From the NCBI GenBank assembly GCA_030681365.1, contig JAUXWH010000158.1, forward strand, positions 20,379 to 84,378: a stretch of DNA of 64,000 bases, in the 5' to 3' direction. A model generated the notes under the pieces. The model saw only the letters and a program-made list of their open reading frames with translations, searched no databases and was not told the DNA's origin. The DNA is from Bradyrhizobium sp. (GTDB lineage Bacteria; Pseudomonadota; Alphaproteobacteria; Rhizobiales; Xanthobacteraceae). Position numbers and translations under genes: made by a program. This document shows positions 1-41,070 of the stretch, piece after piece; the stretch's first letter is position 1, and each line of letters opens with the position of its first letter.

Positions 1-1
1 G

Positions 2-5040: not shown

Positions 5041-5123
5041 CATCGCGCCTGCCCTCACAATTGGTTTGACCGCGCCTGTAACGAGGCCGCGGCTTTCGCG
5101 CTATCCACCTGGGGGATGAATCC

Positions 5124-5570: not shown

Positions 5571-5592
5571 TCGCGTCAGCGCGGGCGGCGCC

Positions 5593-6015: not shown

Positions 6016-6089
6016 GCCGTCGCCGCGTTTTCCGGGTGTGCCCGAGTCGCTTGCCGGGCGAGGTCGGTCTGAAGCTCCGGGAGGATGGT

Positions 6090-7283: not shown

Positions 7284-7605
7284 GCGCTCGCCGCCATCAT
7301 TTTGCCCGGCCGCAACCTTCGAAATCCCCGCCGGACGGCGGGCTCGGGGCGGTCGGCTAATAACAGGACAGGGAAGACAGCCGTCAACCCCTTGACCCGG
7401 CACGCCAGTCGTTCTGTGATGCACGCGAACTATTCAGTCGCTGCACGTTGAGGGGCCTGCCGCGACCGCCGATCCATCGCCTGGCCGGACTGCGCATCGA
7501 ACTGCCTGTCAGGCATGCCGTTTGCAGGGATGGATTATCGGATCGGCCCGTCGGCGTGCGCGAGAATAGGCAACCGTTCCGGACGACCCTTGAAAGGCCT
7601 TTGCC

Positions 7606-8622
7606 ATGAAACGTGTATCGCTGGTTTTCACCCTTGCTCTCGCCGCCGCCTTTTCCACCGAGGCCGCCACCGCGCAAACGCTCAAGACGGTCAAGGACCG
7701 GGGCATGCTGTCCTGCGGCGTCAGCCAGGGCCTGCCGGGCTTCTCGTCCCCCGACGACAAGGGCAACTGGACCGGCTTCGACGTCGATATCTGCCGCGCG
7801 ATCGCCGCCGCCATCTTCAACGATGCGACCAAGATCAAATTCGTGCCGTTGTCGGCGAAGGATCGCTTCACCGCGCTGCAATCCGGCGAAATCGACGTGC
7901 TGTCGCGCAATACGACCTGGACGCTTTCCCGCGATACCTCGCTGGGCGCCAATTTCACCGGCGTGACCTATTATGACGGCCAGGGCTTTCTGGTGAAGAA
8001 GTCGCTCAAAGTGAATTCGGCGCTGGAACTCAACAGCGCCTCGGTTTGCGTGCAGACCGGCACCACGACCGAGCAGAACCTCGCCGACTACTTCAAGGGC
8101 AACAACATGAAGTATGAGGTGATCGCGTTCGGAACCGCCGACGAGACCATCAAGGCCTACGAGTCCGGGCGCTGCGACGTCTTCACCTCTGATGTCTCGC
8201 AGCTCTATGCCGAGCGGCTGAAGGTCGCCAATCCCGCCGACCATGTCGTGCTTCCGGAGGTGATCTCGAAGGAACCGCTCGGCCCGATGGTGCGTCATGG
8301 CGACGACCAGTGGTTCGATATCGTCAAGTGGACATTGTTTGCGATGGTGGGCGCCGAAGAACTCGGCATCACCCAGAAGAACGCCGATGAACTGGCGAAA
8401 TCGAACAAGCCCGAACTCCGGCGCGCCTTCGGCACCGACGGCAATCTCGGCGAACAGCTTGGCCTGACCAAGGACTGGCTGCTGCGAATCGTGAAGGCGG
8501 TCGGCAATTACGGCGAATCGTTCGATCGCAACGTCGGCCCTGGTTCCAAGCTCGGGATCGCCCGCGGGCTTAACCAGCTCTGGAACAAGGGCGGGATCCA
8601 GTACGCGCCGCCGATCCGCTGA
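7606..8622 (+). CDS. aapJ: General L-amino acid ABC transporter, periplasmic binding protein
   Basis: The 338-residue precursor has a clear signal peptide (MKRVSLVFTLALAAAFSTEAATAQ, cleavage after about residue 24). The mature part begins TLKTVKDRGMLSCGVSQGLPGFS and holds the family-3 solute-binding fold with GFDVDICRAIAAAIF and DVLSRNTTWTLSRD. It captures many L-amino acids in the periplasm for the AapQMP translocator encoded immediately downstream. In rhizobia the Aap system is a major broad-specificity amino acid importer, important in symbiosis. Gene order J-Q-M-P and length match the known operon. Confidence 0.95.
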   Translation: MKRVSLVFTLALAAAFSTEAATAQTLKTVKDRGMLSCGVSQGLPGFSSPDDKGNWTGFDVDICRAIAAAIFNDATKIKFVPLSAKDRFTALQSGEIDVLSRNTTWTLSRDTSLGANFTGVTYYDGQGFLVKKSLKVNSALELNSASVCVQTGTTTEQNLADYFKGNNMKYEVIAFGTADETIKAYESGRCDVFTSDVSQLYAERLKVANPADHVVLPEVISKEPLGPMVRHGDDQWFDIVKWTLFAMVGAEELGITQKNADELAKSNKPELRRAFGTDGNLGEQLGLTKDWLLRIVKAVGNYGESFDRNVGPGSKLGIARGLNQLWNKGGIQYAPPIR

Positions 8623-8645
8623 TCGCTGGCCCGGAGGCTGCGGCG

Positions 8646-9851
8646 ATGAGCATCGAGCCCCGAAAACCGCCGCCGCAGTTCACCGCCAAACTGCAGCGCG
8701 CGCTCGGGGGCAGGGCCGGCTGGGCCGGCTTTGCGCTGCAGATCCTGTTCGTCGCTGCCTTGGCCTGGCTTTGCTACGAGATCGTCGCCAATGCCCGCGC
8801 CAATTTGCAGGCGCAGCGGATCACGGCCGGTTTCGGCTTCATGGCGAATACGGCGGGGTTTGACGTCAGCCAGGCCCTGATTCCCTATTCCGGATCCGAC
8901 TCCTATACCCGTGTGTTCCTGGTCGGCCTGCTCAATACGCTGCTGGTCTCGATCATCGGCATCTTCTTCGCCACGCTGATCGGGTTTCTCGTGGCGCTGG
9001 GGCGGTTGTCGCCGAACTGGCTGCTGTCGCGGATTTCCGGCGGCTATGTCGAACTGATCCGCAACCTGCCGCTGCTGTTCCAGATCCTGTTCTGGTATCT
9101 GGCGGTGCTGGCGGCGCTGCCGAGCCCGCGGCAGAGCATCTCGCTGTTCGACAGCTTCTTTCTGAGCAACCGCGGTTTCGTCGTTCCAAGACCGATCGGC
9201 AATCCCGGCTTCGAGCCGTTCGTGGCCGCCATCGTCATTGCGGTGATCGCCACCCTGCTGCTGCAGCGCTACGCCCGCAAGCAGCTGTTCGACCATGGCC
9301 GGATGATCCGGACCTTGCCCTATGTGCTGGGGATGCTGATCGGCCTGCCGCTGCTGAGCGCGCTATTGTTCGGCGCGCCGGTCAAGTTTGAATATCCCGA
9401 ACTCAAGGGCTTCAATTTCGCCGGCGGCTCGCGCGTCATTCCGGAGTTCGTGGCGCTGACGCTGGCGCTGTCGACCTATACCGCGGCCTTCATCGCCGAG
9501 ATCGTCCGCGCCGGCATCCAGTCGGTGCACAAGGGGCAGATGGAAGCCGGCTCCTCGCTGGGGCTGCAGCGCGGCTCGACGCTGCGGCTGATCGTGGTGC
9601 CGCAGGCGATGCGGGTGATCCTGCCGCCGCACACCAACCAGTATCTCAACCTCACCAAGAACTCGTCGCTGGCGGTCGCGATCGGCTATCCCGATCTGGT
9701 CTCGGTGTTCGCAGGCACGACGCTGAGCCAGACCGGGCAGGCGATCGAGATCATCGCCATCACCATGGGCGTCTATCTGGTGATTTCGCTGGTGACCAGT
9801 GCGATCATGAGCTTTTACGGATGGCGGCTTGGACGGAGCCTCGGCCCATGA
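8646..9851 (+). CDS. aapQ: General L-amino acid ABC transporter permease
   Basis: The 401-residue inner-membrane permease of the His/Glu/Gln/Arg/opine family carries several hydrophobic helices. The cytoplasmic EAA loop that docks the ATPase is visible as [24 protein letters not shown] (about residues 299-322). A long insertion between early helices, in which [14 protein letters not shown] falls, is typical of AapQ. It pairs with AapM to make a heteromeric pore. The stop overlaps the aapM start in an ATGA, so translation is coupled. Confidence 0.94.
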
Positions 9852-11383
9852 GCGAGTTGGAGAGCGAACTTTCGACCCCGGCCTTCATCCGCCAGGATCT
9901 GGTTCCGGAGCGCGCCGCGCCGATCAAGACCACCGGTTTTGTCGGGTTCCTGCGCACCCGGCTGTTCAATTCCCCGACCAACATTCTGCTCACCATCGTC
10001 AGCGTCCTGCTGCTGTGGGTCACGATCGTTCCCACGGTAAAGTTCCTGCTGATCGATGCGGTCTGGACCGGTACCGACCGCACCGCATGCCTCGAGGAGA
10101 CCGCGAAACGCACCGTCGGAGCCTGCTGGCCGTTCGTGCAGGCGAAATTCAGCCAGTTCATCTACGGCTTTTATCCGGAGGCGGAGCGGTGGCGGGTCAA
10201 CCTGACCTTTGTGCTCGCCGCCGTACTGCTGCTGCCGCTGCTGATTCCGCGACTGCCGGCCAAGGGTCTCAATGCGGGCCTGTTCTTTATTGCACTTCCC
10301 GTCGTCGCATTCTTCCTGCTGCATGGCGGCGGATTGAAGGGATTTGGCGTGAGCTGGACCGCCGCGCTGCTGGGGGGATTCAACGACAGCATCGGCGACG
10401 GCGGCGCCAAACTTGCCAATGTCAGCGAAACAATCGCGGTGATCGGACCGGTACTCTGGCTGCTTGGCAAGCTCCTGGTCCTGATCAGTACCGTCATCTT
10501 CTATGTGCTGTGGCCGCTGACCTGGCTGCGCGACCAGATCCAGGCGTCCGACAGCCCGGTCTGGGCCGATTTCGCCGCGACCGCCGCGATCGTTTCGCTG
10601 CTGCTGTTCTTCGCGGGCGGCGGCGTGCGCACCGGCTGGCGCGCGCTGATCGTCAGCCTGGCGGTCTTTGCGGGAATCGGCATCGTCATCGCGGTCATGG
10701 GCCTCGACCGCGGCGGACTGCCGGTGGTCGATACGCGGCTGTGGGGTGGCCTGCTGGTGACGCTGGTGGTCTCGGTGACGGGGATCGTGGCGTCGATGCC
10801 GGTGGGCATCGCGCTGGCGCTCGGCCGTCGCTCGACGATTCCATTGATCCGGATATTCTCGATCGCCTTCATCGAGTTCTGGCGCGGGGTGCCGCTGATC
10901 ACGGTGCTGTTCTTCGCGACCTACATGCTGCCGCTGTTCGTTCCCGCAGGGTTCACCATCGACGGACTGATGCGCGCCCTGATCGGCATCGCGCTGTTTG
11001 CCGGGGCCTATCAGGCCGAGGTCATCAGGGGCGGCCTGCAGGCGATCCCGCGCGGGCAAAGCGAGGCGGCAAGCGCGCTCGGCCTGTCCTACTGGAAGAC
11101 GACGGGGCTGATCGTGATGCCGCAGGCGCTGCGCCACGTCATCCCCGGCCTCGTCAACAGCTTCATCGCGCTGTTCAAGGATACCTCGCTGGTCTCGATC
11201 GTGGCGCTGTTCGATCTGCTGGGACAGCTGCGGGCATCCTTCAGCGACCCGGTATGGTCGACGCCGACGACCTTGTTCACGGGCTTTGCCTTCACCGGCA
11301 TGGTCTACTTCGTGTTCTGCTTTGGAATGTCGCGCTATTCACTGTTCGTCGAGAACAGGCTCAATGCACACCGCCGGAACTGA
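9848..11383 (+). CDS. aapM: General L-amino acid ABC transporter permease
   Basis: The protein has 511 residues from the ATG overlapping the aapQ stop; the ORF-track start nine codons upstream lies inside aapQ. It is longer than AapQ because of extra N-terminal helices. The EAA loop reads [31 protein letters not shown] near the C-terminus, followed by a final helix ([21 protein letters not shown]). It forms the second half of the translocation channel for amino acids delivered by AapJ. Eight bases separate it from aapP. Confidence 0.94.
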
Positions 11384-30195: not shown

Positions 30196-30238
30196 CAATG
30201 GGGCCACGTGGCGGAGTGGTTACGCAACGGTCTGCAAA
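30196..30238 (+). repeat. attL: 43-bp direct repeat with 5' half of tRNA-Cys
   Basis: This copy is identical over 43 bases to 40991-41033. It contains bases 1-37 of tRNA-Cys, stopping just past the anticodon GCA, and then diverges into element DNA. It is a broken tRNA copy and cannot make a functional tRNA. It probably lies next to the original chromosomal tRNA promoter. Confidence 0.9.
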
Positions 30239-30356
30239 GACTATTCCGGCCGTAGCGGGTAGGGGCGGCCAGTACCGAAACGTCCCATTTCATAGGCGTT
30301 TCTGAGCGAGCCGCGCCCATCCCGTCCCTTGCAGTATTGGCCTGTTTTATTGAGTT

Positions 30357-30376
30357 GGGTGCCATTTCGGGTGCCA
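30357..30376 (+). promoter_or_regulatory. Putative integrase arm-type sites, left end
   Basis: Two direct copies of GGGTGCCA start 12 bases apart (30357 and 30369), about 120 bases inside attL. The same pair occurs at the right end at 40922 and 40933. Paired short direct repeats at both ends of a tyrosine-integrase element are what arm-type binding sites look like. Confidence 0.55.
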
Positions 30377-30424
30377 ACTCCTCATCCATGGTCGGGGCCG
30401 ACGGGTTCGCCTTTCGAAGCCGAA

Positions 30425-30604
30425 CTAGCTGCTCCGCTTGGACATCTCTTCACGTAAATCCGCAATCGCCTGCCCGGTCTCTTCTAACGCGCCAACGAGG
30501 CCGCGCATGATCCCGTTGGCCTGTTCCTGCAGCTCGTTCTGCTTATCGACCGACTTTTGTAACTGATACAGCGCGTTTTCAAGGTCGGCGTGGTCATTGT
30601 CCAT
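30425..30604 (-). CDS. Small coiled-coil protein of the element
   Basis: The protein has 59 residues from the ATG at 30604, chosen because GGAAAG sits just upstream; an ATG four codons earlier is possible. The product (DLENALYQLQKSVDKQNELQEQ...) is an amphipathic helix with heptad-like leucines, then LVGALEETGQAIADLREEM. I do not recognise it. It is the outermost gene at the left end, transcribed in the same direction as the head genes but separated from them by a plus-strand gene. Confidence 0.6.
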   Translation of the reverse strand: MDNDHADLENALYQLQKSVDKQNELQEQANGIMRGLVGALEETGQAIADLREEMSKRSS

Positions 30605-30781
30605 GGTGCTTTCCATTCTGTTGTTTGCGGCGTAGCTTAGGCGCCGGCCGGGGTGCTGGTAACACCCCGACCGACTTGCCATCAACAGCCGTAAGCGGGC
30701 CGCCGATGACCGATTCCCCAGATACCACGAATCTAACTGGCTGCCCGCCTCGGCGTTTTCAACGCACAGGGAGGCTGAGCC

Positions 30782-31030
30782 ATGAGGTTCTTTGATCCAG
30801 GAAATGTCGCTGACTTTTTCGTCCACAATATCGAGCGCGTCGACAGCATGGGGAGCACGTCTCGGATCGTGTTCTGCACTCCCAAGTCTGATCGGGGCGA
30901 GACAGTCAACGAATCAGTTTTGTCGCTGATAGTACCGACCGACCAACTCGCCGGCATGGTAGGGAAGCTTATGCAGGCGCCGAGCGCTTCGATCACCCGC
31001 AAAGTCGAGAGCGACGAGGTTCTGCACTAG
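30782..31030 (+). CDS. Small hypothetical protein of the element, opposite strand
   Basis: This 82-residue protein is preceded by an excellent GGGAGG about seven bases before the ATG. The product (MRFFDPGNVADFFVHNIERVD...) is soluble, with alternating strands (SRIVFCTPKS, ESVLSLIVPTDQLAGMVGKLM) and no Cys-rich or membrane segment. No family is recognised. It is transcribed against the structural genes near the left end, the usual place for accessory or host-interaction genes in satellites. Confidence 0.65.
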   Translation: MRFFDPGNVADFFVHNIERVDSMGSTSRIVFCTPKSDRGETVNESVLSLIVPTDQLAGMVGKLMQAPSASITRKVESDEVLH

Positions 31031-31056
31031 CCCGCGCGCCGGGCGGCGGGGGGTTA

Positions 31057-31977
31057 CTACTCCGCCGCCTCGCACCGGATCGTGGCCCGCAGCCGATACG
31101 CACGATTGTTACAGGCTGCGCTGCAATAGAGCGCGTTTTTCTTCGCGGGACAGAATGGCCGGCCACATATGGCGCAGGGCCTCTCGGGCGGCGGCGGAAC
31201 CGCATGGTAAGCCTTATTGTACGCCTTCACACCCGCCCGGCGGCAGTCAGGCGAACACCACTGGTTATGGGCGCGCGAAGGATAAAACTCCCTTCCGCAT
31301 TGCGCGCAAGGGCGCGGCTCAATGGCAAATTTCCGTTTCCCGGAGCAAGTGTGCGAGCAAAAGCGATAGCCTTGTGGCTTCCATAGCCGCTCGAATCGAG
31401 TGCCGCAGCCTTCGCAGATGTATTCGCCGACCGACTTTTGACGCGATTTGGTCCGAGCTGCCATGACGGCCCGCATGCCGGCCTCGCCCTCGATCTGTGT
31501 GAGCCGCCACCGGAACGCCGACTGAGCGGCGCTATTGCAAGTTCGGCTGCAAAACTTGGTTCCGTCACGGGCATCGGCATCGAGAGGCTTTCCGCAGCGC
31601 TGGCAAAGAACGTAGCGGGTCGCCGTGTATCCGTCCTGGCACCACTCGGGCTGACCTTCGTGCCACATCGGCCGCGTCGCACCGATGCGTCGCAGCGCCT
31701 CGCTGACGATGGCAGACGCACGAGCGTCAGCTTTGCTCCAAGTCATGCCTTCGAGGCAGAAGGTCGACCGCAGCCCATGTCGCACCGCGCCCTCGAATTG
31801 AAACCGGCTGGAATGTCCGGCTTCCAGAATCTCGATCGCGCGCGGGACCAGAATTTCATTATCTTTCCGGCTCAGATTTTCGCGCTTGCGCGGTGTCCCG
31901 GCGAGCGTGATCTCCGTGGACCGGCGGCCTGCACGCGACCGCAGGTACGCCGCCAATTGATGCGAGATTTGAAGCAT
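31057..31977 (-). CDS. Cys-rich multi-zinc-ribbon protein downstream of the head genes
   Basis: The 306-residue protein has a basic N-terminal half (QLAAYLRSRAGRRSTEITLAG...) and a C-terminal half packed with CxxC pairs: LCQRCGKPLD...FCSRTC, ICEGCGTRFE...FCSHTC, PCAQCGREF...WCSPDC and PCAICGRPFC...YCSAAC. These are four tandem treble-clef or zinc-ribbon units about 35-50 residues apart. GAGGA lies eight bases before its ATG. It is the last gene of the head operon, ten bases after the portal. I cannot name the family; nucleic-acid binding is the likely mode. Confidence 0.7.
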   Translation of the reverse strand: MLQISHQLAAYLRSRAGRRSTEITLAGTPRKRENLSRKDNEILVPRAIEILEAGHSSRFQFEGAVRHGLRSTFCLEGMTWSKADARASAIVSEALRRIGATRPMWHEGQPEWCQDGYTATRYVLCQRCGKPLDADARDGTKFCSRTCNSAAQSAFRWRLTQIEGEAGMRAVMAARTKSRQKSVGEYICEGCGTRFERLWKPQGYRFCSHTCSGKRKFAIEPRPCAQCGREFYPSRAHNQWCSPDCRRAGVKAYNKAYHAVPPPPERPCAICGRPFCPAKKNALYCSAACNNRAYRLRATIRCEAAE

Positions 31978-31986
31978 GGCGCGTCC

Positions 31987-33042
31987 TCATGCGTCCCCAA
32001 GGCTGCGCTCCCACGCGTCGTTCACATCGGTATCCGACAGTCCGGCTTCCTTGGCTTGCGCCAGCGCGGCAACGATGCCGGCGAAGGCACGTGCACGGCC
32101 GCCATGATCGACGGCGCCCGTCGGGGTGACGACATCGATGGACACCGAGCCGCCTAGCTTTGCGGTTGCTTCCTCGGCGAGCAGCGCGGCAATGGGCGAA
32201 AGGGTCCAGGTTGCGAGATGCCGTTGTGCTTCCCGTACAAGCGGCCCCTGAGCTTGATTGCTCCACAGGGCGGGTAGGACGCCGAACGCTTGCGATACCG
32301 CATCACGCGCAGCCGCAAGCGTTTCCGTCGACATCGTGCGCTCGAGGTCAGGCGAAAGGCTTGCCGGCTTCCAGTCGGTTTGCGGTACAGGGCCGCCAGC
32401 CGCTGAGACAGCAACGGATTCCCGCAGCAGGACTCGGCCCCTTTGACCTCGGAATGACCGTCCGAGCGCCGTGCTGTCGGTCTCCGCCTGTTCGGGCATA
32501 GGCACAACCTGGCTCCCGATCGGAGCTAATTCGAAAACCTCCTCCAAGGCGCTTTCGACGGCATGCAGGAGCCCAGCTGAGAGGCTGGAGCGACGCAGCG
32601 GTGCCGTCCCGCAATAAGGCGCCACCGGATCGCAACCGATCCTGACATGCAGCACCTCGCCCGCGAGAGCAGTCTGCGTGGTGCCTCCGCCGGCCTCGCT
32701 GATCGAGGCTCGATAAGCAACCGGCATTCCGTTGCGGGTCGACACTTCCCAATCCGAGCACGGCACCAGGCCATCGCGGATCAGGAAGACACTTTCGCCA
32801 CGCAGCGCCAGGCTGCGACCGATCAGGGCCATGGTGCGCCGGTCGAGCATGGTGGTGCCGCTCACGGCCGCCAAGCTGAGGCCGCCTTCCCACAGGCTGA
32901 CGCAGCTCTGCGCCGTCGCCGTCAATTCAGCGAGGCCGCGCCGGCCGGAGATGTACGCTTCGCGAGCTGCTATGATCTCGGCCGTAAAGCCGGACGCGGC
33001 GGAACGTTTCTCGGTGCGGCGAAACCAATTCAGAATACCCAC
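31987..33042 (-). CDS. Phage portal protein
   Basis: The portal is 351-353 residues. The track begins at TTG 33048, but GGAGGG sits only one base before it and exactly seven bases before GTG 33042, so I prefer the GTG. Portal features include ILNWFRRTEKR at the N-terminus, TAQSCVSLWEGGLSLA, MALIGRSLALRGESVFLI, the conserved VLHVRIGCDP and a C-terminal AQGPLVREAQRHL segment. Portals form the dodecameric DNA gate of the head. It is shorter than HK97-type portals (about 400). Unusually it lies at the downstream end of the head cluster. Confidence 0.78.
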   Translation of the reverse strand: MGILNWFRRTEKRSAASGFTAEIIAAREAYISGRRGLAELTATAQSCVSLWEGGLSLAAVSGTTMLDRRTMALIGRSLALRGESVFLIRDGLVPCSDWEVSTRNGMPVAYRASISEAGGGTTQTALAGEVLHVRIGCDPVAPYCGTAPLRRSSLSAGLLHAVESALEEVFELAPIGSQVVPMPEQAETDSTALGRSFRGQRGRVLLRESVAVSAAGGPVPQTDWKPASLSPDLERTMSTETLAAARDAVSQAFGVLPALWSNQAQGPLVREAQRHLATWTLSPIAALLAEEATAKLGGSVSIDVVTPTGAVDHGGRARAFAGIVAALAQAKEAGLSDTDVNDAWERSLGDA

Positions 33043-33044
33043 CG

Positions 33045-33587
33045 TCAAGCCCTCCGATACGGACGCAGCAGATCGCCCGCGCCGCTATTCTGCATTGCGC
33101 GCGCCATCCATGACGCCACGCGGCTCACCTCGTGCGTCCTCACGCCAGGAATCTCTTCTCGCTCGGATGCCGCACCGGGCGCGCCGGGCTCGGCGGCGAA
33201 GTATTCGGCAAGCCGCCGGAACGCCTCATCGACGGCCGCCGGAACGACTCCGCCACCGACAGACGCGGAGAACCGATAGGGTCCACTTGCGGGAAGGTAG
33301 TAACCACCGAGCGGCGAAGCATCTAGTTCGGCCGTTTCCCATTCGCTCGCGCCGCACGACCAGACTTCGACCGTATCCATCGTTGCCGGCGTGAGCGGCG
33401 GGTGCCACTCGCCGCAGCCCTCGACGACCCACGTCACGTCGCGCGACGTCCAGCGGTGCGCGATGTATGTCTCGATCCGTTGCCAGATCATGTCGGAGTC
33501 GAGCGCCGCCGCAGCGGTGGAGAGGCCATCCGGCGCGTCGGGATAGTCAGCCGGAAGCGATTCCGTCTGTTGGATTGTGGTCAACAT
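33045..33587 (-). CDS. Probable head-tail connector/adaptor protein
   Basis: The 180-residue protein lies between protease and portal genes; its start shares one base with the protease stop and its end abuts the portal start. Residues DMIWQRIETYIAHRWTSRDVTWVV and AAVDEAFRRLAEYFAAEP suggest a helical bundle flanking a beta-rich centre (GYYLPASGPYRFSASVGGG). That outline resembles gp6-type connectors that join portal and tail, but no diagnostic motif settles it. The assignment rests mainly on position and size. Confidence 0.5.
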   Translation of the reverse strand: MLTTIQQTESLPADYPDAPDGLSTAAAALDSDMIWQRIETYIAHRWTSRDVTWVVEGCGEWHPPLTPATMDTVEVWSCGASEWETAELDASPLGGYYLPASGPYRFSASVGGGVVPAAVDEAFRRLAEYFAAEPGAPGAASEREEIPGVRTHEVSRVASWMARAMQNSGAGDLLRPYRRA

Positions 33588-34102
33588 TATGCCCTCCAGC
33601 GCGCGAGCGTGCGGTGCAGGCCGGCATCAAGCCGCTCGGAACGATGCCGCGCTTGCACAACCGTGCCGTCATAGGCGGGAAAGCTGCTCACGATCGAAAT
33701 CTCGTGAAGGTTGAGGCTGCGAAGCTCGCGGCGGCTGCCTTGCCAGCGCTCGCCGTCTTTTTGCACCGTGAAGCCAAAGGAAGCGCCGCCGACATCACCG
33801 CGCTCCGCCAGTTCAAGGATGTCTCGGCCGAACGAGGTGTTTGGCACGTCGAAATCGAAGTGCAGCCCGCGCGCGTCCTCTGCAAGACGAAGCGTGCCGC
33901 TCCTGGTGCGAGCCAGGACCGCCTTCGCTTCATGGTCGGCAAGGGCGAGAACGTCACGCCCTTCCCTTAGCGTGTCAGTGAAAGCGCCGGGCAGGATGAC
34001 CTCGGTGAAGTCACGGATGAGCGTGTCCTGCAGGAAGACGGCGGCATAGCCCTCCAGCCTCCGGCCGACTGCGCGTAGTTCGATGCCAACCCGGCGTTCC
34101 AT
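33587..34102 (-). CDS. Prohead protease, HK97 family
   Basis: The protein has 171 residues from the ATG at 34102; the longer track frame overlaps the capsid gene. Typical features are LEGYAAVFLQDTLIRDFTEVILPGAFTDTL and DVLALADHEAKAVLARTRSGTLRL, where the histidine of the Ser-His pair is expected (DHE). SFGFTVQKDGERWQ and LHEISIVSSFPAYDGT complete the U35/HK97 protease signature. It cleaves the capsid scaffold and itself during maturation. It is encoded after the capsid gene rather than before it. Confidence 0.88.
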   Translation of the reverse strand: MERRVGIELRAVGRRLEGYAAVFLQDTLIRDFTEVILPGAFTDTLREGRDVLALADHEAKAVLARTRSGTLRLAEDARGLHFDFDVPNTSFGRDILELAERGDVGGASFGFTVQKDGERWQGSRRELRSLNLHEISIVSSFPAYDGTVVQARHRSERLDAGLHRTLARWRA

Positions 34103-34107
34103 CTGTT

Positions 34108-35370
34108 TTACTCGACGTTGATCGCGGTCAACAAATGCAACTGCGCGAGCCGTGAAACCGCCACGTCGAAGGTGGCGATAGCCGTCAGGCGAAGCATGCC
34201 GCTCTGCGCGTCGCTGTAAGGATCGCGAATCAGATCGATCCCGCCCCATGATCCAATCCAGATCGGAGCGACACCGCCCGCACTCGTGGCGAGCAGCGCG
34301 ACCGAGGTATCCGGGGTCGCGGATGTCAGCGTCGCCTGCGACGACAGGACGTTGTTCTGCGCGGGGAAATTCTTGACATGCCGATCCCACTCGGAAACCG
34401 CGGTGCCCGTCACGAGCTCCGAGTCCATGAAGTTCCACATAGCGGGATGCATAAGAACCTTCACGTCCGCCGGGCTGTTCGCCGAGTTGGCGGTCATAAA
34501 CGTGCCAGCCACAGTGCGGAAGATGCTGGACGAAGCGTCGGCACTGATCGCGGTGGTGCCGTAGCCGTGCGTGCCCTGGCCGGAGATCACACCAACGGGC
34601 TGACCGTTCGCGCCGGTGCCGTTGAACACGCCAGTGTCGAGCACGGCCTGCATGGTGCCGGAAATGTCACGACGAACCGCTTGCTCCAGAGCGTCGCCGC
34701 TCTGTTTGAGCGACTTGCGCGTGATCTTGACCTGGATGCCCAGGTTATGGTCCGGCGACAGCGTGCGCTCAGTCGTGGCGAACACGGTCGGCCCCGCCAC
34801 GTTGGCGGTCTCGCCATCCGCCCAGCCTGCCGAAACGCTTGAGGTGGTCAGGGGGTATTCGACCAGGCCCGTGTCGATGTTGACCATCTGCGCGCCCATG
34901 CGAGCCGCCGCGCTATCCGGGAAGAGTCGATCGATAACCGGCCGTACCTGCTTCGGGTCGAAGATGCCGCTGGCGATTGTCTCGCCGACGCGCCGCTCCA
35001 GGGCGGCCCACGGAATCGGCAAACCGCGGTAACCTCCTTTGCTTCGCAGCTCCTGCACGACTTCAGCAGTCGCGCCATCGAGCACTCGGCCCTCGTCGAG
35101 AGCGAGCACCACCTGGCGCATCTCGAACTTGTTGACGAGATCGGAATATTCACGATCGCCACGGGTTTCGAGGCTGGCACCGGCTTCGCGGCGCTCGGTA
35201 TCCTCGGCGATCAACGCCGCACGAAAGCGCGCCTCATTCGTTTGGTACTCGGTATCGAGCTCAGTCATGCTGCGCTGTTCGGTTTCGTCCGGCTTTTCCT
35301 TGCCGACCAACGCGGCAAGGTGCTGACGAATCTCCGACTGACGTTTCTGAATCTTCACTGAGGTAAGCAA
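34108..35370 (-). CDS. HK97-type major capsid protein
   Basis: I place the start at TTG 35370, giving 420 residues: AAAGGAG ends seven bases upstream, and the longer track start would lie inside the HNH gene. The N-terminal third is a charged helical scaffold-like region (KIQKRQSEIRQHLAALVGKEKPDETEQRSMTELD), then the HK97-fold body with AQMVNIDTGLVEYPLTTSS and QVKITRKSLKQSGDALEQAV. The SVAL...IGSWGGIDLIRDPYSDA and C-terminal FDVAVSRLAQLHLL match the fold's closing strands. It overlaps the HNH gene by 16 bases. Confidence 0.87.
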   Translation of the reverse strand: MLTSVKIQKRQSEIRQHLAALVGKEKPDETEQRSMTELDTEYQTNEARFRAALIAEDTERREAGASLETRGDREYSDLVNKFEMRQVVLALDEGRVLDGATAEVVQELRSKGGYRGLPIPWAALERRVGETIASGIFDPKQVRPVIDRLFPDSAAARMGAQMVNIDTGLVEYPLTTSSVSAGWADGETANVAGPTVFATTERTLSPDHNLGIQVKITRKSLKQSGDALEQAVRRDISGTMQAVLDTGVFNGTGANGQPVGVISGQGTHGYGTTAISADASSSIFRTVAGTFMTANSANSPADVKVLMHPAMWNFMDSELVTGTAVSEWDRHVKNFPAQNNVLSSQATLTSATPDTSVALLATSAGGVAPIWIGSWGGIDLIRDPYSDAQSGMLRLTAIATFDVAVSRLAQLHLLTAINVE

Positions 35371-35642
35371 GCTGTGTCTCCTTTCAGGAGGTCTATCCAC
35401 GCTTGGCGCGCGGGTGATGGAAGCTGGCCTCTTTCGGCCAGCGTTTCGGTGATGTGACAGGTGCGGCACAACGTAACGACGTTGCCCATGCTGAATGCGA
35501 GTGCGGGCTCCTGTCGCGCCCGGATCAGGTGATGAACTTCGAGGTTTGCAGGCGAGCCGCATTTCGTGCACTGCCAGCCGTCGCGCCGCTTGGCAGCGAA
35601 GCGTACGGCCTTCCAACGCTTATCGTTGTAGTTCATGCCCAT
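35355..35642 (-). CDS. HNH homing/packaging-type endonuclease
   Basis: The 95-residue HNH nuclease has zinc-ligand pairs CTKCGSPANLEVHHLIRARQE and CRTCHITETLAERG. The LEVHHLI segment supplies the His-His of the beta-beta-alpha-metal site and NVVTLC the asparagine. GAAGG lies seven bases before the ATG at 35642. Small HNH nucleases next to terminase are needed for DNA packaging in many cos-type phages such as HK97 and are common in satellite islands. It overlaps the terminase stop and the capsid start. Confidence 0.9.
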   Translation of the reverse strand: MGMNYNDKRWKAVRFAAKRRDGWQCTKCGSPANLEVHHLIRARQEPALAFSMGNVVTLCRTCHITETLAERGQLPSPARQAWIDLLKGDTACLPQ

Positions 35643-37264
35643 TGCGGCGCCTTCGCTTTGCGAATGGTGCGGCCTGCAACGCGCGATCCTTCTCCAATAG
35701 CCATTACGGTGGCCGTGGCGGCGTCGACGCGGGAGTGACTGCGAGCTTTCGCGATCTTCGCCGCGCCTGTCGGATCAACCAGCGTAATGCAATCGGCAAG
35801 TGCCGATCGTAGCAACAACGACGGCGCGACCGCGATGCGCTTGTCAAAGACGAACTGACGAAACCGCTCGACGTCCTCAGCGGAATCCTTCCAGCCCTGT
35901 CCGCGCCATGTCGGCACGACATTGAGGGACGTCTTCCCCAATGCTTCCAGAAACTCACTCTGACGAAATCGGTCACAGCAAATCGACTGGATGGCGTAGC
36001 CTTCGAGCTTGCCGATCATGGCGGAAACGAACGCGGGGATGTCGACCACCTGCTGGCCGCACACCATCAACTCGCCGGCTTCTTGCATCTGTTGATACCG
36101 GCCGCCGACACCATCATTCCGGCCGCGATCCAGCAATTCAGGCGAGGTTGGGAACGCGCCGTGGCATTCGAGCCGCCCGGTTTGCGGCCAATAATTGGTC
36201 CAGGCTGACATGGACGATGAGCCGCCCAAATCTATACCGACACAGAGCGGCCCGGAGCGCGGCGGAAGTGCCGCCGGCTGTACCTCACACGCCAGCCAGC
36301 GGTCGACGCTGATCAAGACCGCTCTGTTCTCGGCAGAACAGCGCTGATTGAGATGAAATAGGCGATAGTTTGAGAGCGCACTGCCACCACGCTGCACAGC
36401 GCGTCTGGCGGCTGCTTGCAGCCATTCGAGAGAGCCACCGATCCCTTCAGCGGCGCCCGGATTGGCAGCTAGAATTGCCTCCGCGCTGTCAGGCGTCAGG
36501 CCTTCCGGTGCGCGATACTCGGCGACGAAGATACCATCGCTAGGATCGTCGAGGAGCCGCGAGAATGGATGACTGTCCGATGGCGCCGAAGTCGAGATCA
36601 GCAACACCTTGCCGTTGCGCTTGCCGCACGCCGAGGTGATCGCGTTCTCGAGGCTGTCGCCCTTGTCGTCCGGCCAAAAACCTCTTTCGTCACATAACGC
36701 GAAGACAGGCGACAAGCCGAGCGCATTCTTCGCGTCCGACGCCAGAACGTCGAGCGTGTGTCCGCCACCGTCACTCGCGAAGCGAATTTGTAAGCGAGGA
36801 GCGCGGACGAACGTCAGAGCCTTGCGAACCTTGAGCGGAAGTGATTGCGCCAGGCCCTCGATGTACTTCCAGGCAATGGCGCCCTGATCCTTCGTTTTCG
36901 CCGCGATTAGCACAGAACGCCGCGGCTGCTTGTCGAGAACGCCAATCAACGACGCCAGCGCCAAGCCGGCGCCGAGCATGGTCTTCCCGTTGCCTCGGCC
37001 GACGCTGAGAGCGGCAATCGAGGTACCCTCAGCCAATGCGCCGCGAATCCAGGCCTTTTGAAATTCGGCCAGCCTGATCTTTTTCCCGGCAAGGGGACCT
37101 TCCGGGACCTTCAGGCCTTCGAGGAACGCAATTGCAGCCTCGGCCGCCGAGAGCGAATTTTTGCGAGGCCCCATGCGGTTGCCCACCCCAGAGGATTCTC
37201 GGGGATTGGCACCGTCGTGGGGGCATGCCAGTTTGGCGCTTGTGCTAGTTCGCCTTGAAGCCAT
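35633..37264 (-). CDS. Terminase large subunit
   Basis: The protein has up to 543 residues. The ATPase domain has Walker A IAALSVGRGNGKTMLGAGLA (about residues 83-102) and Walker B with its catalytic glutamate PVFALCDERGFW. The C-terminal nuclease domain contains CVGIDLGGSSSMSA and DFIR-like acidic positions (ICCDRFRQSEFLE), ending with RVDAATATVMAIGEG. It pumps DNA into the prohead through the portal. The start is uncertain: ATG 37264 has no clear Shine-Dalgarno, and ATG 37174 (GGGGTGG upstream) would remove 30 residues. No small terminase gene is recognisable nearby. Confidence 0.9.
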   Translation of the reverse strand: MASRRTSTSAKLACPHDGANPRESSGVGNRMGPRKNSLSAAEAAIAFLEGLKVPEGPLAGKKIRLAEFQKAWIRGALAEGTSIAALSVGRGNGKTMLGAGLALASLIGVLDKQPRRSVLIAAKTKDQGAIAWKYIEGLAQSLPLKVRKALTFVRAPRLQIRFASDGGGHTLDVLASDAKNALGLSPVFALCDERGFWPDDKGDSLENAITSACGKRNGKVLLISTSAPSDSHPFSRLLDDPSDGIFVAEYRAPEGLTPDSAEAILAANPGAAEGIGGSLEWLQAAARRAVQRGGSALSNYRLFHLNQRCSAENRAVLISVDRWLACEVQPAALPPRSGPLCVGIDLGGSSSMSAWTNYWPQTGRLECHGAFPTSPELLDRGRNDGVGGRYQQMQEAGELMVCGQQVVDIPAFVSAMIGKLEGYAIQSICCDRFRQSEFLEALGKTSLNVVPTWRGQGWKDSAEDVERFRQFVFDKRIAVAPSLLLRSALADCITLVDPTGAAKIAKARSHSRVDAATATVMAIGEGSRVAGRTIRKAKAPQWA

Positions 37265-37327
37265 GCAGCGAAATTACCCGCTGCGCGTATTGCTTCGCCA
37301 CCGGACGTCGGGACACGCAGTCAAGTG

Positions 37328-37882
37328 CTACCTACCTGGTAGATATATGTGTTCCGCTACAGCATCCGATGCAGTGTCAGAAACGGCCTCTACGCTTCCG
37401 CTACAGCATCCGTCAGCGGTATCTGATTGCAGGCTCGTTCCGCAGCAGCATCCGATCGCTTCCCCTACAGCATCCGTACGCTTCCGCTGGGGAAACCGTG
37501 CTTTGTTTTTCTCCGGCGTCCAACGCAGGAAGTCTTTGGTGGACAGTTCGTTGCTGACGTCGCACTTGAAGCACGTCAGGCGCCATTCGCTGGCGTGGCG
37601 AACCTTGAAACTGAAGGCGCCCTTCTTCACCGCCACGATGAAGCCGCGATCCTGCAAATCATCCAGCGCGCGCTTCGCGGTGGCGTTGCCGATGTGCAGT
37701 TCTCTGACGGCGCAGCGGATCGAGTAGCCGATCCTGCCGTTGTTGCTGCCGTGGTAGCGTTTGGCGATGTCGACGTAGACGGCGCGGGGGATAGCTCCCA
37801 GGCCCTTCCAGGCCTGGGAGTCCATCAGGTGATGGAAGATCATCACATGCCGCGGCGATTTATTGCGGGAGTGTTTGGCCAC
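37328..37882 (-). CDS. Winged-helix replication-initiator candidate with embedded iterons
   Basis: The 184-residue protein starts at GTG 37882, with GAGGAAG about ten bases upstream. The N-terminal 115 residues form a helix-turn-helix/winged module (MIFHHLMDSQAWKGLGAIPRAVYVDIAKRYHG...GYSIRCAVRELHIGNATAKRALDDLQDRGFIVAVKKG), like phage-type replication proteins. The C-terminal 45 residues are low-complexity. They are encoded by four 20-bp direct repeats read in two different frames, so the DNA rather than the peptide is conserved. Together this looks like the lambda O arrangement: initiator with the origin inside its gene. Confidence 0.65.
   Translation of the reverse strand: MAKHSRNKSPRHVMIFHHLMDSQAWKGLGAIPRAVYVDIAKRYHGSNNGRIGYSIRCAVRELHIGNATAKRALDDLQDRGFIVAVKKGAFSFKVRHASEWRLTCFKCDVSNELSTKDFLRWTPEKNKARFPQRKRTDAVGEAIGCCCGTSLQSDTADGCCSGSVEAVSDTASDAVAEHIYLPGR
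37351..37490 (-). repeat. Iteron array: candidate replication origin of the element
   Basis: On the minus strand the 17-bp core CGGATGCTGTAGCGGAA occurs at 37478-37459 (one change), 37456-37437 (two changes), 37414-37395 and 37370-37351 (both perfect), with a half copy near 37490-37481. Starts are 22, 42 and 44 bases apart, all multiples or near-multiples of 22. Downstream lies a short AT tract (ACATATATCT). The array lies within the 3' part of the winged-helix gene. Confidence 0.75.
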
Positions 37883-37889
37883 GGCTGGG

Positions 37890-38183
37890 CTACTTCCTCA
37901 GCTTCTCAGCCATGCCTTCCATGAAGGCGGTGGCAAACTCTGGCGCGATGAAGACGAAGGTATCTTCATCAGGCCAGCTGCGTTGGCGGATGATTACCTC
38001 CCCGCTGCGGTTGCGATAAACGGCGGTCGCCCGCTGCTCCCGCAACACGATCGACTCCTCGTCAGGGTTGTTCCAGTCGAAGTCATCCTCTGAATGCGCC
38101 GGGATCACGACAGGATCGCGTACCTCGGCGTTCCCCGTAACGGTCGGCAGCGGCAATTCGTTCTTATTGAGAGGCTTAGTCAT
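37890..38183 (-). CDS. Hypothetical protein of the element
   Basis: The 97-residue acidic protein (NELPLPTVTGNAEVRDPVVIPAHSEDDFDWNNPDEESIVL) has a beta-rich centre REQRATAVYRNRSGEVIIRQRSWPDEDTFVFI and a short C-terminal helix. Its start overlaps the preceding gene by eight bases and it ends seven bases before the initiator candidate, so it belongs to the same early operon. No family is recognised. It could be a replication or regulation helper by position. Confidence 0.65.
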   Translation of the reverse strand: MTKPLNKNELPLPTVTGNAEVRDPVVIPAHSEDDFDWNNPDEESIVLREQRATAVYRNRSGEVIIRQRSWPDEDTFVFIAPEFATAFMEGMAEKLRK

Positions 38184-38505
38184 GGCGAGCCCTCCAGATC
38201 ATGACGCTGTTGCCTCCGGCGTTCTTTGTGCGATCCTCGGTGCGCTTCACCTTGCCGTCGCGGTACAACTCGCTGATCCGGGGACGGACGGCATACTGCG
38301 TCAGGCCGACACGCTTGCCGATCTCCTCGGAGCAGAGGCCACTAGGCTCAGCCTGGAGCGCAGCCAGGATCATGTCGCGATGGCTGCTTGCGATGCCTGC
38401 AATGCGATCGGCAGCCTTGAAGGCCGTTTCGGGTGATCCGGCTTTAGTGCCGGGACTGTCGGGGTAAGCCGCCCTTGCGGTTGGCTCGGCAAAACTGTAT
38501 TTCAT
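38176..38505 (-). CDS. Winged-helix DNA-binding protein of the element
   Basis: The protein has 109 residues from the ATG at 38505; the track's extra 34 residues are proline-rich and lie upstream of an AGAGAGAA site. The C-terminal 70 residues form a winged helix: HRDMILAALQAEPSGLCSEEIGKRVGLTQYAVRPRISELYRDGKVKRTEDRTKN. This is the pattern of phage and mobile-element regulators that read a promoter or origin. It precedes the hypothetical gene with an eight-base overlap. Confidence 0.75.
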   Translation of the reverse strand: MKYSFAEPTARAAYPDSPGTKAGSPETAFKAADRIAGIASSHRDMILAALQAEPSGLCSEEIGKRVGLTQYAVRPRISELYRDGKVKRTEDRTKNAGGNSVMIWRARHD

Positions 38506-38581
38506 TGATGTTCTCTCTTTTTCCAAGTTGGGGGGAATTGAAGGTCCGGGCGCCGCCCCAGCGCTTCGGGCCTTCGTCGTT

Positions 38582-38812
38582 TCAGGCGACATCGGGCCAG
38601 GCGACAAGCGGCAGGCCGAGGCGAATGCGGGCTTCGTGATCGCGCTCGCGGGCCTCCTCGACGCGCGGCAGCACCATCACGCGGTTCAGTGACGGCTCCT
38701 CGTAGAACACGCGTAGGAGGCCGCTACTGGCCCAACGCGAGACGGTGCGTTCCGACTTGCCGAGATCGTGGGCGATACGGCGCCTGCCGCGGATGGAGTG
38801 GCGGCTGCTCAT
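38582..38812 (-). CDS. Small HTH DNA-binding protein of the element
   Basis: The 76-residue protein has an N-terminal helix-turn-helix (RRIAHDLGKSERTVSRWASSGLLRVF) and a charged C-terminal helix (LPRVEEARERDHEARIRLGL). Its ATG shares the last base of the upstream stop TAA, so translation is coupled to the excisionase-like gene. Small proteins of this layout are common regulators in integrated islands. Its target is unknown. Confidence 0.75.
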   Translation of the reverse strand: MSSRHSIRGRRRIAHDLGKSERTVSRWASSGLLRVFYEEPSLNRVMVLPRVEEARERDHEARIRLGLPLVAWPDVA

Positions 38813-39006
38813 TAGGCTGCCTCCACTTTCTTTGCTGCGTCGTCGAGCATCTGTTCGAGGGCGCGAACGGGCACCCGCAAAAGCTTTCCGATCTTGATTG
38901 TTGGAATTTCGCCGCGCTCGGCGGCGGCATAGGCGGCATTACGGCTCAATTCAAAGTATCGCTTACCCGCTTCCGGTACCGAAAGCGTAAGGGGAATGTC
39001 GTCCAT
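38812..39006 (-). CDS. Excisionase-like HTH protein
   Basis: This 64-residue protein matches the HTH_17/AlpA-excisionase outline: TLSVPEAGKRYFELSRNAAYAAAERGEIPTIKIGKLLRVPVRALEQML. Such proteins bend att-site DNA and steer the integrase toward excision, and in satellites also regulate early genes. It is the first gene of the minus-strand operon, divergent from the RHH gene across a 112-base control region with a perfect inverted repeat. Confidence 0.82.
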   Translation of the reverse strand: MDDIPLTLSVPEAGKRYFELSRNAAYAAAERGEIPTIKIGKLLRVPVRALEQMLDDAAKKVEAA

Positions 39007-39082
39007 CGATAGCTCCTATTTGGTTCGACCGAGAACTAATATGGACAAAGCGGGACGCGTCTGCCATACTGTTTTCGTGCGA

Positions 39083-39104
39083 TTTGTATAAGTCGCTATA
39101 CAAA
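39083..39104. promoter_or_regulatory. Inverted-repeat operator in the divergent control region
   Basis: TTTGTATA and TATACAAA form perfect 8-bp arms around a six-base spacer. The site lies 15 bases before the RHH-protein ATG and is AT-rich, unlike the flanking genes. It is a likely binding site for the RHH regulator or a helper-phage derepressor and may overlap the plus-strand promoter. Confidence 0.6.
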
Positions 39105-39118
39105 ATAAGGAACAGAGC

Positions 39119-39790
39119 ATGGCACCGAGAAAGCGCGCACCCGGCGGGGGTCGGAAGCCCCTCGACCCCATAGCCAAGACCGCCAACTTCTCGACCCGGT
39201 GTACGCCCGAAATGCGCGCACGGTTGGAGGCCCTTGCGGCCGAGAAGGGAAAGTCAATTTCACAGATTTCGGAAAAGATTCTAGAGTTGGGCCTGCAGCA
39301 ATACGCCAACGATCAGCTGTCTAGCCCGATCCGCGCGTTGGCATATTTGCTTCGGTTGCTCGCGCTTCGATGCAGCTACGTCGATACGAGTGTTTCGGAC
39401 GATGATCGAGAGTGGCACAACGATCCGTTTGCGTTCGATGCATTCGCTCGCGCTATCCAAATGCTGCTTGAGCGGATTCGTCCCGCAGGCGAGATCAAGA
39501 CGCCGAAAGAGGTCTTTCCCGGACTTCCAACTTGGCCAACCTCAGAGAGGCAGGCGGAGGTAGCGTTTGCAGATGTTTGGCGTCAGGTGATGACTCTCGA
39601 GCCCATCAGCAAGACAAAAGTGATCGATCGCGACAAACAGCCGAGCAAGGCAAAAGAGCTTGCCGCACAACGCGGCTGGAAACTTGGTCCGATATCGGAC
39701 GAATGGGCCGGCCGCATTTCAGGACGTTCCTATTCGATGGACGACATACGCCGCACGTTTGGAATCAAATCAGAGGTGAAGAAATCATGA
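39119..39790 (+). CDS. Ribbon-helix-helix-like regulator upstream of integrase
   Basis: The 223-residue protein has AAGGAACAG ahead of its ATG. Residues 20-60 (KTANFSTRCTPEMRARLEALAAEKGKSISQISEKILELGLQQY) look like a ribbon-helix-helix DNA-binding domain with an Arc-type strand and two helices. The rest is helical with no recognised domain. The stop overlaps the integrase ATG (ATGA), so the two are coupled. A role as the element's repressor or integrase regulator is inferred from position and domain. Confidence 0.7.
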   Translation: MAPRKRAPGGGRKPLDPIAKTANFSTRCTPEMRARLEALAAEKGKSISQISEKILELGLQQYANDQLSSPIRALAYLLRLLALRCSYVDTSVSDDDREWHNDPFAFDAFARAIQMLLERIRPAGEIKTPKEVFPGLPTWPTSERQAEVAFADVWRQVMTLEPISKTKVIDRDKQPSKAKELAAQRGWKLGPISDEWAGRISGRSYSMDDIRRTFGIKSEVKKS

Positions 39791-40914
39791 AGGGCCACAT
39801 TCAACAACGCGGCAAACACTCTTGGCGCCTGAAGTTCGATGCCGGCCGTGACGAAAAGACGGGCGAGCGCCGCTCTCAATTCGTCACGTTTCGCGGCACC
39901 AAGCGCGAAGCACAGGTCAAGATGGCTGAGCTGATCGCGTCGGTCGCGCAAGCCAAATATGTAGAGCCTCACAAGACCACCGTTACCGAATGGGTGCGCG
40001 CTCGCGTGGACCATTGGGAGGCCTCGAGCGAGATCAGCGCACGGACGGCGCAACGCTATCGACAATTGGTCGAGCACCAGATCGTACCGCATATCGGCGC
40101 GAAGCTGCTGCAAAAGTTGCGAACACTTGATATCGAGGGATGGCACGCGACGTTGCGGACAAGCGGGCGGGTACGAGGGAAGGGCGATCTATCGGCCCGC
40201 ACCGTTGGCCATGCGCATCGCGTTCTCAACAAAGCGCTGCGAGAGGCCACCAAGAACGAGCTAGTCACCAAGAACGTGGTCGCACTTGAAGCCGCGCCAA
40301 AGGTCGCCAGCGAAGAAATGGAGATCGTGCAGGACGTGCCGGCCTTCGTTGAAAAGATGCGGGGCCACCGCCTATTCACCATGGGAATGATCGGGCTGTT
40401 GACAGGCATGCGGCTCGGCGAAGTGTTGGCGCTGCGTTGGGGCAGGGTGGACATTGACGGGAAGGTAATTCAGGTCCGGGAGGCGCTGGAGGCGACCAAG
40501 AAATACGGCATCCGGTTCAAGGTGCCGAAATCGAAGGCCGGCCGCCGCGACATCACCTTGCCCGATTTGCTGGTCGACGCACTGCGCGACTTCCGGCGGG
40601 AGCAACTGGAATTGCGGCTCAAGCTTGGATCCGGGAAGCTGCCCGACGACGGCCTTCTGTTTGGGAACGTCGAAGGTGAACCGCGCTCGCCGTCGTCGGT
40701 CTCGCGCGCTTGGGGCGATGCTACGGGCGTTGGCTACCACAACCTGCGCCACACCCACGCTAGCCAGCTTATCGCCGCAGATGTGGATATTGTCACGATT
40801 AGCAAGCGGCTCGGGCATGCGAGCCCGGCAATTACTCTTGCGGTCTACGCGCACATGTTCAATAAGACCGACGCCAAGGCGGCAGCGGCGATCAATGCGG
40901 CGCTGAATCGCTAA
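39787..40914 (+). CDS. Tyrosine recombinase (integrase) of the element
   Basis: The protein has 375 residues from ATG 39787; the longer track ORF runs through the RHH gene out of frame. The N-terminal arm/core-binding domains (HSWRLKFDAGRDEKTGER and the SAM-like TVTEWVRARVDHWEASSEISARTAQRYRQLVEHQIVPHIG) precede the catalytic domain. Catalytic residues are visible: Arg in GLLTGMRLGEVLALRW, His-x-x-Arg in HNLRHTHASQL, the second His in KRLGHASPAIT and Tyr in AVYAHMF. It lies 76 bases from attR and inserts the element at tRNA-Cys. Confidence 0.95.
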   Translation: MKGHIQQRGKHSWRLKFDAGRDEKTGERRSQFVTFRGTKREAQVKMAELIASVAQAKYVEPHKTTVTEWVRARVDHWEASSEISARTAQRYRQLVEHQIVPHIGAKLLQKLRTLDIEGWHATLRTSGRVRGKGDLSARTVGHAHRVLNKALREATKNELVTKNVVALEAAPKVASEEMEIVQDVPAFVEKMRGHRLFTMGMIGLLTGMRLGEVLALRWGRVDIDGKVIQVREALEATKKYGIRFKVPKSKAGRRDITLPDLLVDALRDFRREQLELRLKLGSGKLPDDGLLFGNVEGEPRSPSSVSRAWGDATGVGYHNLRHTHASQLIAADVDIVTISKRLGHASPAITLAVYAHMFNKTDAKAAAAINAALNR

Positions 40915-40921
40915 ACGCCAG

Positions 40922-40940
40922 GGTGCCAATTGGGTGCCAA
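40922..40940 (+). promoter_or_regulatory. Putative integrase arm-type sites, right end
   Basis: GGGTGCCA occurs at 40922 and 40933, eleven bases apart, just after the integrase stop and about 50 bases before attR. It is the same pair and orientation as at the left end. Confidence 0.55.
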
Positions 40941-40990
40941 CTTCGTGGTTTGTTCTCTCGGGAATGCCCGCTAAGTGCTTGATAAGTCTA

Positions 40991-41033
40991 CAATGGGGCC
41001 ACGTGGCGGAGTGGTTACGCAACGGTCTGCAAA
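40991..41033 (+). repeat. attR: 43-bp direct repeat inside intact tRNA-Cys
   Basis: This copy is identical to 30196-30238 over 43 bases. It begins six bases before the mature tRNA and ends in the anticodon loop. Right of it the chromosomal 3' half of the tRNA continues unbroken. Confidence 0.9.
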
Positions 41034-41070
41034 ACCGTGCACTCGGGTTCGATTCCCGACGTGGCCTCCA
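40997..41070 (+). tRNA. tRNA-Cys (GCA)
   Basis: This 74-base tRNA includes an encoded CCA. The acceptor strand GGCCACG pairs fully with CGTGGCC, the anticodon loop is CTGCAAA giving anticodon GCA (Cys), and GGTTCGATTCC forms the T arm. It is the target of the integrated element and remains complete. Its 5' half and upstream sequence now come from the element side, so its promoter lies in element DNA. Confidence 0.95.

What the first reader, a model, noticed from the sequence alone, without database searches (positions are those of the whole stretch)
37351..37490. Iterons embedded in the initiator gene, read in two frames: a lambda-O-like origin
Four 20-bp repeats (core CGGATGCTGTAGCGGAA) lie inside the 3' part of the winged-helix gene at a 22-base period. 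Two copies are translated as SDAVAE/TDAVGE and two as DGCCSG/IGCCCG, so selection acts on DNA rather than on the peptide. In phage lambda the origin iterons lie inside gene O, whose product binds them. The same layout here would give the satellite autonomous replication.
Basis: partly seen in the sequence, partly recalled or inferred. Interest (0 to 1): 0.75.

Follow-up and report, generated by a model that had tools for sequence, protein, structure and literature searches.

The report
Replication origin inside its initiator gene
A small virus-parasite integrated in a soil-type bacterium appears to carry its DNA-copying start site inside the very gene whose protein should recognise it, and the same arrangement, with an extra conserved sequence of unknown role, recurs in dozens of unrelated mobile elements.

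Summary
Four near-identical ~18-bp repeats lie in the 3' part of a winged-helix gene (37328-37882, minus strand), two in each of two reading frames. The spacing is not a uniform 22 but 22, 42 and 44 bp. I collected about 55 distinct relatives of the gene. In 33 distinct loci the region after the DNA-binding domain holds 3-6 iterons. Their sequence is lineage-specific, but they are spaced at whole turns of the helix (phase 10.7 bp). In 25 loci at least two copies lie inside the ORF, and in 19 of those they are in different frames.

Directly after the last iteron comes a lineage-independent box, consensus ACATATAG-(0-6)-TACCATAGGGGG (window 37328-37350). Searching with the box alone recovered new contigs with iterons and an initiator of this family. 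In the closest orthologue, iterons and box sit together, inverted and outside the ORF, so this is a polar DNA module and not a peptide repeat.

Best explanation: a lambda-O-like iteron origin and its initiator, in a ~10.8-kb capsid-gene-carrying satellite. It is not a lambda O family member: the C-terminal domain and P gene are missing. Protein binding and replication are inferred, not shown. The box's role is unknown.

The parts
37328..37882 (-). Initiator-like winged-helix gene (184 aa, GTG start). DNA-binding domain about residues 10-122; C-terminal ~60 aa are encoded by the iteron region
   Evidence: AlphaFold pLDDT 94-98 in residues ~11-90 and 53-67 in the iteron-encoded tail; PHROG initiator families in most relatives
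37459..37476 (-). Iteron 1 in gene order (frame 1, TDAVGEAI)
37437..37454 (-). Iteron 2 (frame 2, IGCCCGTS), most diverged copy
37395..37412 (-). Iteron 3 (frame 2, DGCCSGSV)
37351..37368 (-). Iteron 4 (frame 1, SDAVAEHI), adjacent to the box
37479..37499 (-). Possible degenerate fifth iteron, 22 bp before iteron 1
   Evidence: 76% identity
37328..37350 (-). Conserved box ACATATATcTACCAGGTAGGTAG directly after the last iteron; overlaps the stop codon
   Evidence: family consensus ACATATAG-(0-6)-TACCATAGGGGG
30196..41033 (.). Host element: ~10.8-kb integrated satellite-like island bounded by a 43-bp direct repeat (30196-30238 = 40991-41033) that overlaps the 5' half of tRNA-Cys (40997-41070)
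39532..40914 (+). Tyrosine integrase of the element
   Evidence: Pfam PF00589 E 1.8e-16
38812..39006 (-). Excisionase/AlpA-like HTH_17 protein
35633..37264 (-). Terminase large subunit, directly downstream of the origin
31987..35642 (-). Portal, putative adaptor, prohead protease, major capsid protein and HNH endonuclease genes
   Evidence: same set and order beside the initiator in L022

Best explanation
The 37328-37500 region is the replication origin of a ~10.8-kb phage-satellite-like element. The winged-helix protein is its cognate initiator. It would bind four helically phased, partly palindromic 18-bp iterons in the 3' part of its own gene and assemble a nucleoprotein complex on one face of the DNA. 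It would then open or hand over the adjacent AT-rich conserved box so that host replicative helicase and primase can load. Shown here: the repeats, their multi-frame embedding, their conserved phasing, the linked conserved box, and the co-occurrence of all three with this protein family. Inferred: that the protein binds the iterons, that replication starts there, that the box is the melting or helicase-loading site, and that host replication proteins are used.
For: (1) Iterons are found with the gene across the family: 30 of 53 regions had at least 3 copies against 7 of 159 control windows, giving 33 distinct origins after adding new loci. (2) Spacings cluster at multiples of 10.7 bp (R = 0.85; 0 of 5000 random sets reach it; also when only distinct spacing patterns above 24 bp are used). 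(3) 19 of 25 origins with at least two copies inside the ORF use two or more frames. (4) L014 and L022 have identical spacing 21-52-44, but all four copies differ in concert between them. (5) The box lies right after the last iteron in 25 of 33 origins and in 35 of 55 loci above the 99th percentile of controls, against 4 on the opposite strand. (6) Searching with the box alone gave 7 contigs not brought in by the earlier viral scan, with 3-4 iterons upstream; exactly those 7 encode the initiator beside them. The longer box pattern gave 6 hits: five of those seven plus L204, which carries iterons and the initiator too. (7) In L002 iterons and box are inverted as a unit. (8) PHROG matches of relatives are mostly initiators or helicase loaders: 40 of 56 DnaD-like, 35 replication initiation, 15 and 11 O-like. 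hhalign against the lambda O domain gave probability 91%, E 1e-6 for a single comparison. Best PDB folds are RepA initiators. (9) No iteron copies elsewhere in any locus.
Against: No binding or replication data. The window protein alone matches O-like PHROGs only weakly (E 0.008). Window iterons are poor palindromes. No recognisable helicase loader, primase or helicase was seen among the element's proteins scanned, so replisome recruitment is unexplained. The box's AT tract is only ~14 bp, shorter than lambda's AT-rich region. About 20 of 53 family loci show no iteron set at the criterion used.
Confidence: 0.87

Rival explanations
1. The repeats are operators: the winged-helix protein is a transcriptional regulator that binds them to control the downstream packaging genes or itself.
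For: The family also matches MarR, Crp and GntR-type helix-turn-helix models. The box contains TATA-like sequence. The module lies upstream of TerL in the window and L022.
Against: No copies occur near the gene's own promoter or anywhere else in the loci. The genes next to the module differ between elements: TerL, a terminase small subunit, portal, no packaging gene. Most PHROG matches are initiators. An inverted module (L002) would point a promoter the wrong way.
Confidence: 0.07
2. The repeats and box are a DNA-packaging (cos/pac) site and the protein is a terminase-small-subunit-like recognition protein.
For: Adjacent to TerL in the window and in L022, and to a terminase small subunit in L008. 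An HNH gene, common in cos packaging, is nearby. lambda cosB also uses repeats bound by a winged-helix protein (own knowledge).
Against: Some loci with the module have a separate terminase small subunit far away: ~4.7 kb in L103, ~3 kb in L019. L012 has an integrase but no packaging PHROG among the neighbours tested. No relative matched a terminase PHROG among the 25 families listed.
Confidence: 0.04
3. The repeats are a tandem or low-complexity peptide feature, or chance similarity, without a DNA role.
For: They lie in a predicted disordered tail, where coding constraint is weak.
Against: Two frames, non-codon spacing, helical phasing, concerted changes, presence outside the ORF in relatives, and shuffles.
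Confidence: 0.02

Closest known systems
Phage lambda O / ori-lambda and relatives (phi80 gp15, P22 gp18, Stx phages)
   Same: Winged-helix N-terminal domain collinear by profile. Four ~18-bp iterons lie inside the initiator gene just after the DNA-binding domain; the lambda record annotates them at 39034-39118 within the CDS 38686-39585, phi80 has four gp15 sites inside gene 15. An AT-rich tract follows (PMC7466680).
   Different: No O-like C-terminal domain and no P helicase-loader gene. The ORF ends within or near the origin. Spacing includes 4-5-turn gaps. A conserved sequence box replaces the longer AT-rich region. The module can lie outside and inverted relative to the gene.
RepA_N plasmid initiators and the RepA of the Vibrio satellite PLE (PMC7145576)
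   Same: Closest solved folds are RepA initiators 4pql, 4pt7, 5kbj and 4pta. They bind semi-palindromic iterons. PLE RepA is a satellite initiator without predicted helicase or primase activity.
   Different: Only 3 of 56 relatives match the RepA_N Pfam model, and weakly. PLE iterons lie in a non-coding region. No conserved box of this kind was found in the passages read.
Capsid-forming phage-inducible chromosomal islands (cf-PICI)
   Same: Small integrated element with integrase, excisionase, terminase, protease, capsid and portal genes.
   Different: I could not compare their replication module: no full description was found in the held library. Helper dependence not testable here.

Membership tests
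lambda O initiator family | N-terminal origin-binding winged-helix domain homologous to O | tested here: met
   hhalign 91 collinear columns, probability 91%, E 1e-6 for one comparison; O-like PHROGs match 15 and 11 of 56 relatives. Remote homology only.
lambda O initiator family | Iterons inside the initiator gene, just after the DNA-binding domain | tested here: met
   lambda and phi80 annotations
lambda O initiator family | C-terminal domain that recruits P/helicase, with P or helicase gene adjacent | tested here: not met
   Protein ends in the iteron-encoded low-confidence tail; the downstream gene is TerL
lambda O initiator family | AT-rich region beside the iterons | tested here: inconclusive
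   Only a ~14-bp AT tract within the conserved box
RepA_N initiators | RepA_N N-terminal domain | tested here: inconclusive
   Best PDB folds are RepA initiators but E 0.002-0.01; PF06970 matches 3 of 56 relatives and not the window protein
cf-PICI satellites | Integrase, att sites, own terminase/portal/capsid genes | tested here: met
cf-PICI satellites | No tail genes; uses helper tails | tested here: inconclusive
   No tail gene recognised among the element's proteins scanned, but not every small ORF was scanned; helper use not testable
Iteron-type theta origin | Cognate initiator binds the repeats and replication starts there | not testable with these tools
   needs binding and replication assays

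The most novel reading that the evidence does not exclude
The lineage-independent box ACATATAG...TACCATAGGGGG is a new kind of origin element: a fixed sequence read by a conserved host factor (or forming a defined single-stranded loading site), to which fast-evolving initiator-iteron pairs are attached. Small satellites could then fire replication with a ~120-residue initiator and no helicase, primase or loader of their own.
Probability: 0.3. Interest if true: 0.75.

Novelty: new variant of a known kind. Interest (0 to 1): 0.6.

Why it matters
It defines, from sequence alone, a widespread replication module of mobile elements, mostly alphaproteobacterial: minimal initiator, helically phased iterons and a conserved box. 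That gives a direct handle on how capsid-carrying satellites replicate. It also shows an origin whose position relative to its initiator gene drifts (inside, across or beyond the stop codon, or inverted) while its DNA geometry is held. The box makes helicase loading without an element-encoded loader testable.

Tried and rejected
Single-protein search of IMG/VR found nothing; the alignment query was needed. Box variants CACTATTAGTTTACCA and ACATATAGNTTACCAGGTGG gave only chance-like hits or none. Box searches of plasmids and of 385 class genomes found nothing relevant; the latter pattern was probably too strict. tblastn of relatives in phage and plasmid collections added little. Sequence search of PDB gave only weak generic hits. 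Considered and rejected: the box as a sigma-70 -10/RBS pair (geometry wrong, G-run conserved), rolling-circle nick site (no nuclease domain in the initiator), DnaA box (no good match); these rest on inspection, not on a scan. The strand-naive iteron list of L002 first looked out of order, then proved to be the whole module inverted. The literature searches found no description of this family, but the library lacks most subscription papers.

Full report
Observation. The four repeats exist as described. In gene sense (minus strand, gene 37328-37882) they read CGGATGCTGTAGCGGAA with start spacings 22, 42 and 44 bp. Two copies are in one frame and two in another. Neither dinucleotide shuffles nor synonymous-codon permutations of the gene produce four copies. 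A fifth, degenerate copy may precede them.

Setting. The gene sits in an island bounded by a 43-bp direct repeat, 30196-30238 = 40991-41033. The right copy overlaps the 5' half of an intact tRNA-Cys. The island encodes an integrase, an excisionase-like protein, terminase large subunit, HNH endonuclease, capsid, protease and portal. An IMG/VR contig (L022) carries a relative of the initiator (about 31% identical), an origin of the same plan, and the head genes in the same order at 40-62% protein identity. This resembles a capsid-carrying phage satellite. The nearest initiator relative is in a Pseudolabrys genome (L007, the same record as L002).

Relatives. Searches of the host family, order, GTDB genomes, IMG/VR, phages and plasmids gave about 55 distinct relatives. 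In the order, 57 of 398 genomes match the four-sequence profile, though many of those matches are weak. Relatives occur in Hyphomicrobiales, Caulobacterales, other alphaproteobacteria and some gammaproteobacteria. They lie in satellites, apparent prophages (L103, L118) and integrated elements of megaplasmids (L005, L006).

Iterons. In 30 of 53 regions after the DNA-binding domain a 16-bp word recurs at least three times, against 7 of 159 control windows. After adding contigs, 33 distinct origins were tabulated. The words differ by lineage. Many are partly palindromic, of the form AGTCC-N8-GGACA. Their spacings fall at 21-23, 31-35, 42-45, 52-55, 76, 85-87 and 95-99 bp (one outlier at 67), a helical phase of 10.7 bp (R 0.85; none of 5000 random sets). 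In 25 origins two or more copies are inside the ORF, and in 19 of these they use different frames. L014 and L022 share the spacing 21-52-44, yet all four copies differ together: GTCTCACCAGTGCGAC in one, GTCCCACCAGCGGGAC in the other. The box ranges from 429 bases before the stop codon to about 150 bases after it, so the ORF end drifts while the DNA geometry stays.

The box. Directly after the last iteron most lineages have a second element that does not change with the iterons: ACATATAG, a short spacer, TACCATAGGGGG. A leave-one-out matrix finds it above the 99th percentile of controls in 35 of 55 loci, against 4 on the opposite strand. Several of the others show recognisable variants by eye. 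Searching IMG/VR with ACATATAGNTATACCA alone returned 120 stretches or more, mostly chance. Seven that the protein-based viral scan had not brought in have at least three iterons immediately upstream, and those same seven encode the initiator. A longer version gave six hits: five of those seven plus L204, another origin with its initiator. In L002, the orthologue at 56% identity, iterons and box are inverted together and lie outside the ORF. The module is therefore polar, coherent and independent of the reading frame.

The protein. The window protein itself matches O-like PHROG 345 only at E 0.008. Among 56 relatives most PHROG matches are to DnaD-like loaders, replication initiation proteins and O-like initiators. 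The family profile aligns with nine lambda-O-type domains over 91 columns (probability 91%). AlphaFold predicts a confident winged-helix domain and a low-confidence tail exactly where the iterons are encoded. The best solved folds are plasmid RepA initiators, and viral matches include replication initiators and an O protein.

Mechanism. Most likely the protein binds the iterons, the phased array wraps or stacks on one face, and the AT-rich left half of the box opens. In lambda the iterons bind O and the neighbouring AT-rich tract is unwound (PMC7466680). PLE RepA shows that a satellite initiator without predicted helicase or primase activity can drive replication, there only during phage infection (PMC7145576). 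Which host or helper factor loads here is unknown, and the box is the candidate site. Binding, melting and replication are inferred.

Verdict. It works like lambda ori-O but is not a member of that family: the C-terminal domain and P partner are absent. Origins inside initiator genes are known, so this is a new variant of a known kind. The helical phasing rule, the drifting and invertible placement and the conserved box are the parts worth following.

Noticed in passing
window 30196-41033: Apparent phage satellite of ~10.8 kb with its own head genes; the 43-bp att repeat covers the 5' half of tRNA-Cys rather than the more usual 3' end.
   Followed up: partly
L022 (IMGVR_UViG_3300040801_006064), 1-11161: Contig with integrase, initiator, origin, TerL, HNH, capsid, protease, adaptor and portal in the same order as the window element: a second member of the satellite family.
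   Followed up: partly
L002, downstream of the initiator gene: The whole iteron-plus-box module is inverted relative to the gene and outside the ORF, followed by a small helix-turn-helix ORF and an integrase-like ORF.
   Followed up: partly
L004 (PP003913.1, Pseudomonas phage vB_Pae_U1): Deposited as a 16-kb phage but looks like a satellite: O-like protein with GGTACAGAAACTGTACC iterons in and beyond the gene, a primase, no head genes annotated.
   Followed up: no
L009 11219-13930: 903-aa ORF of which residues 539-844 match a major head protein PHROG, shortly downstream of the origin; the rest is unassigned.
   Followed up: no
L016 around 2380-2400: Box-like sequence on both strands just after the initiator stop, possibly a two-sided origin.
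   Followed up: no
window 38176-38607 and 37890-38183: A winged-helix protein (PHROG 1123, unknown) and a 97-aa protein keep company with the initiator in L002 (both) and L019/L044 (the 97-aa one); possible replication or regulatory partners.
   Followed up: partly
L051, L052 after the initiator stop: Subfamily with 5-6 GACATAGAAACTATGTC-like iterons outside the ORF and a variant box ending TACCACGTAG.
   Followed up: partly
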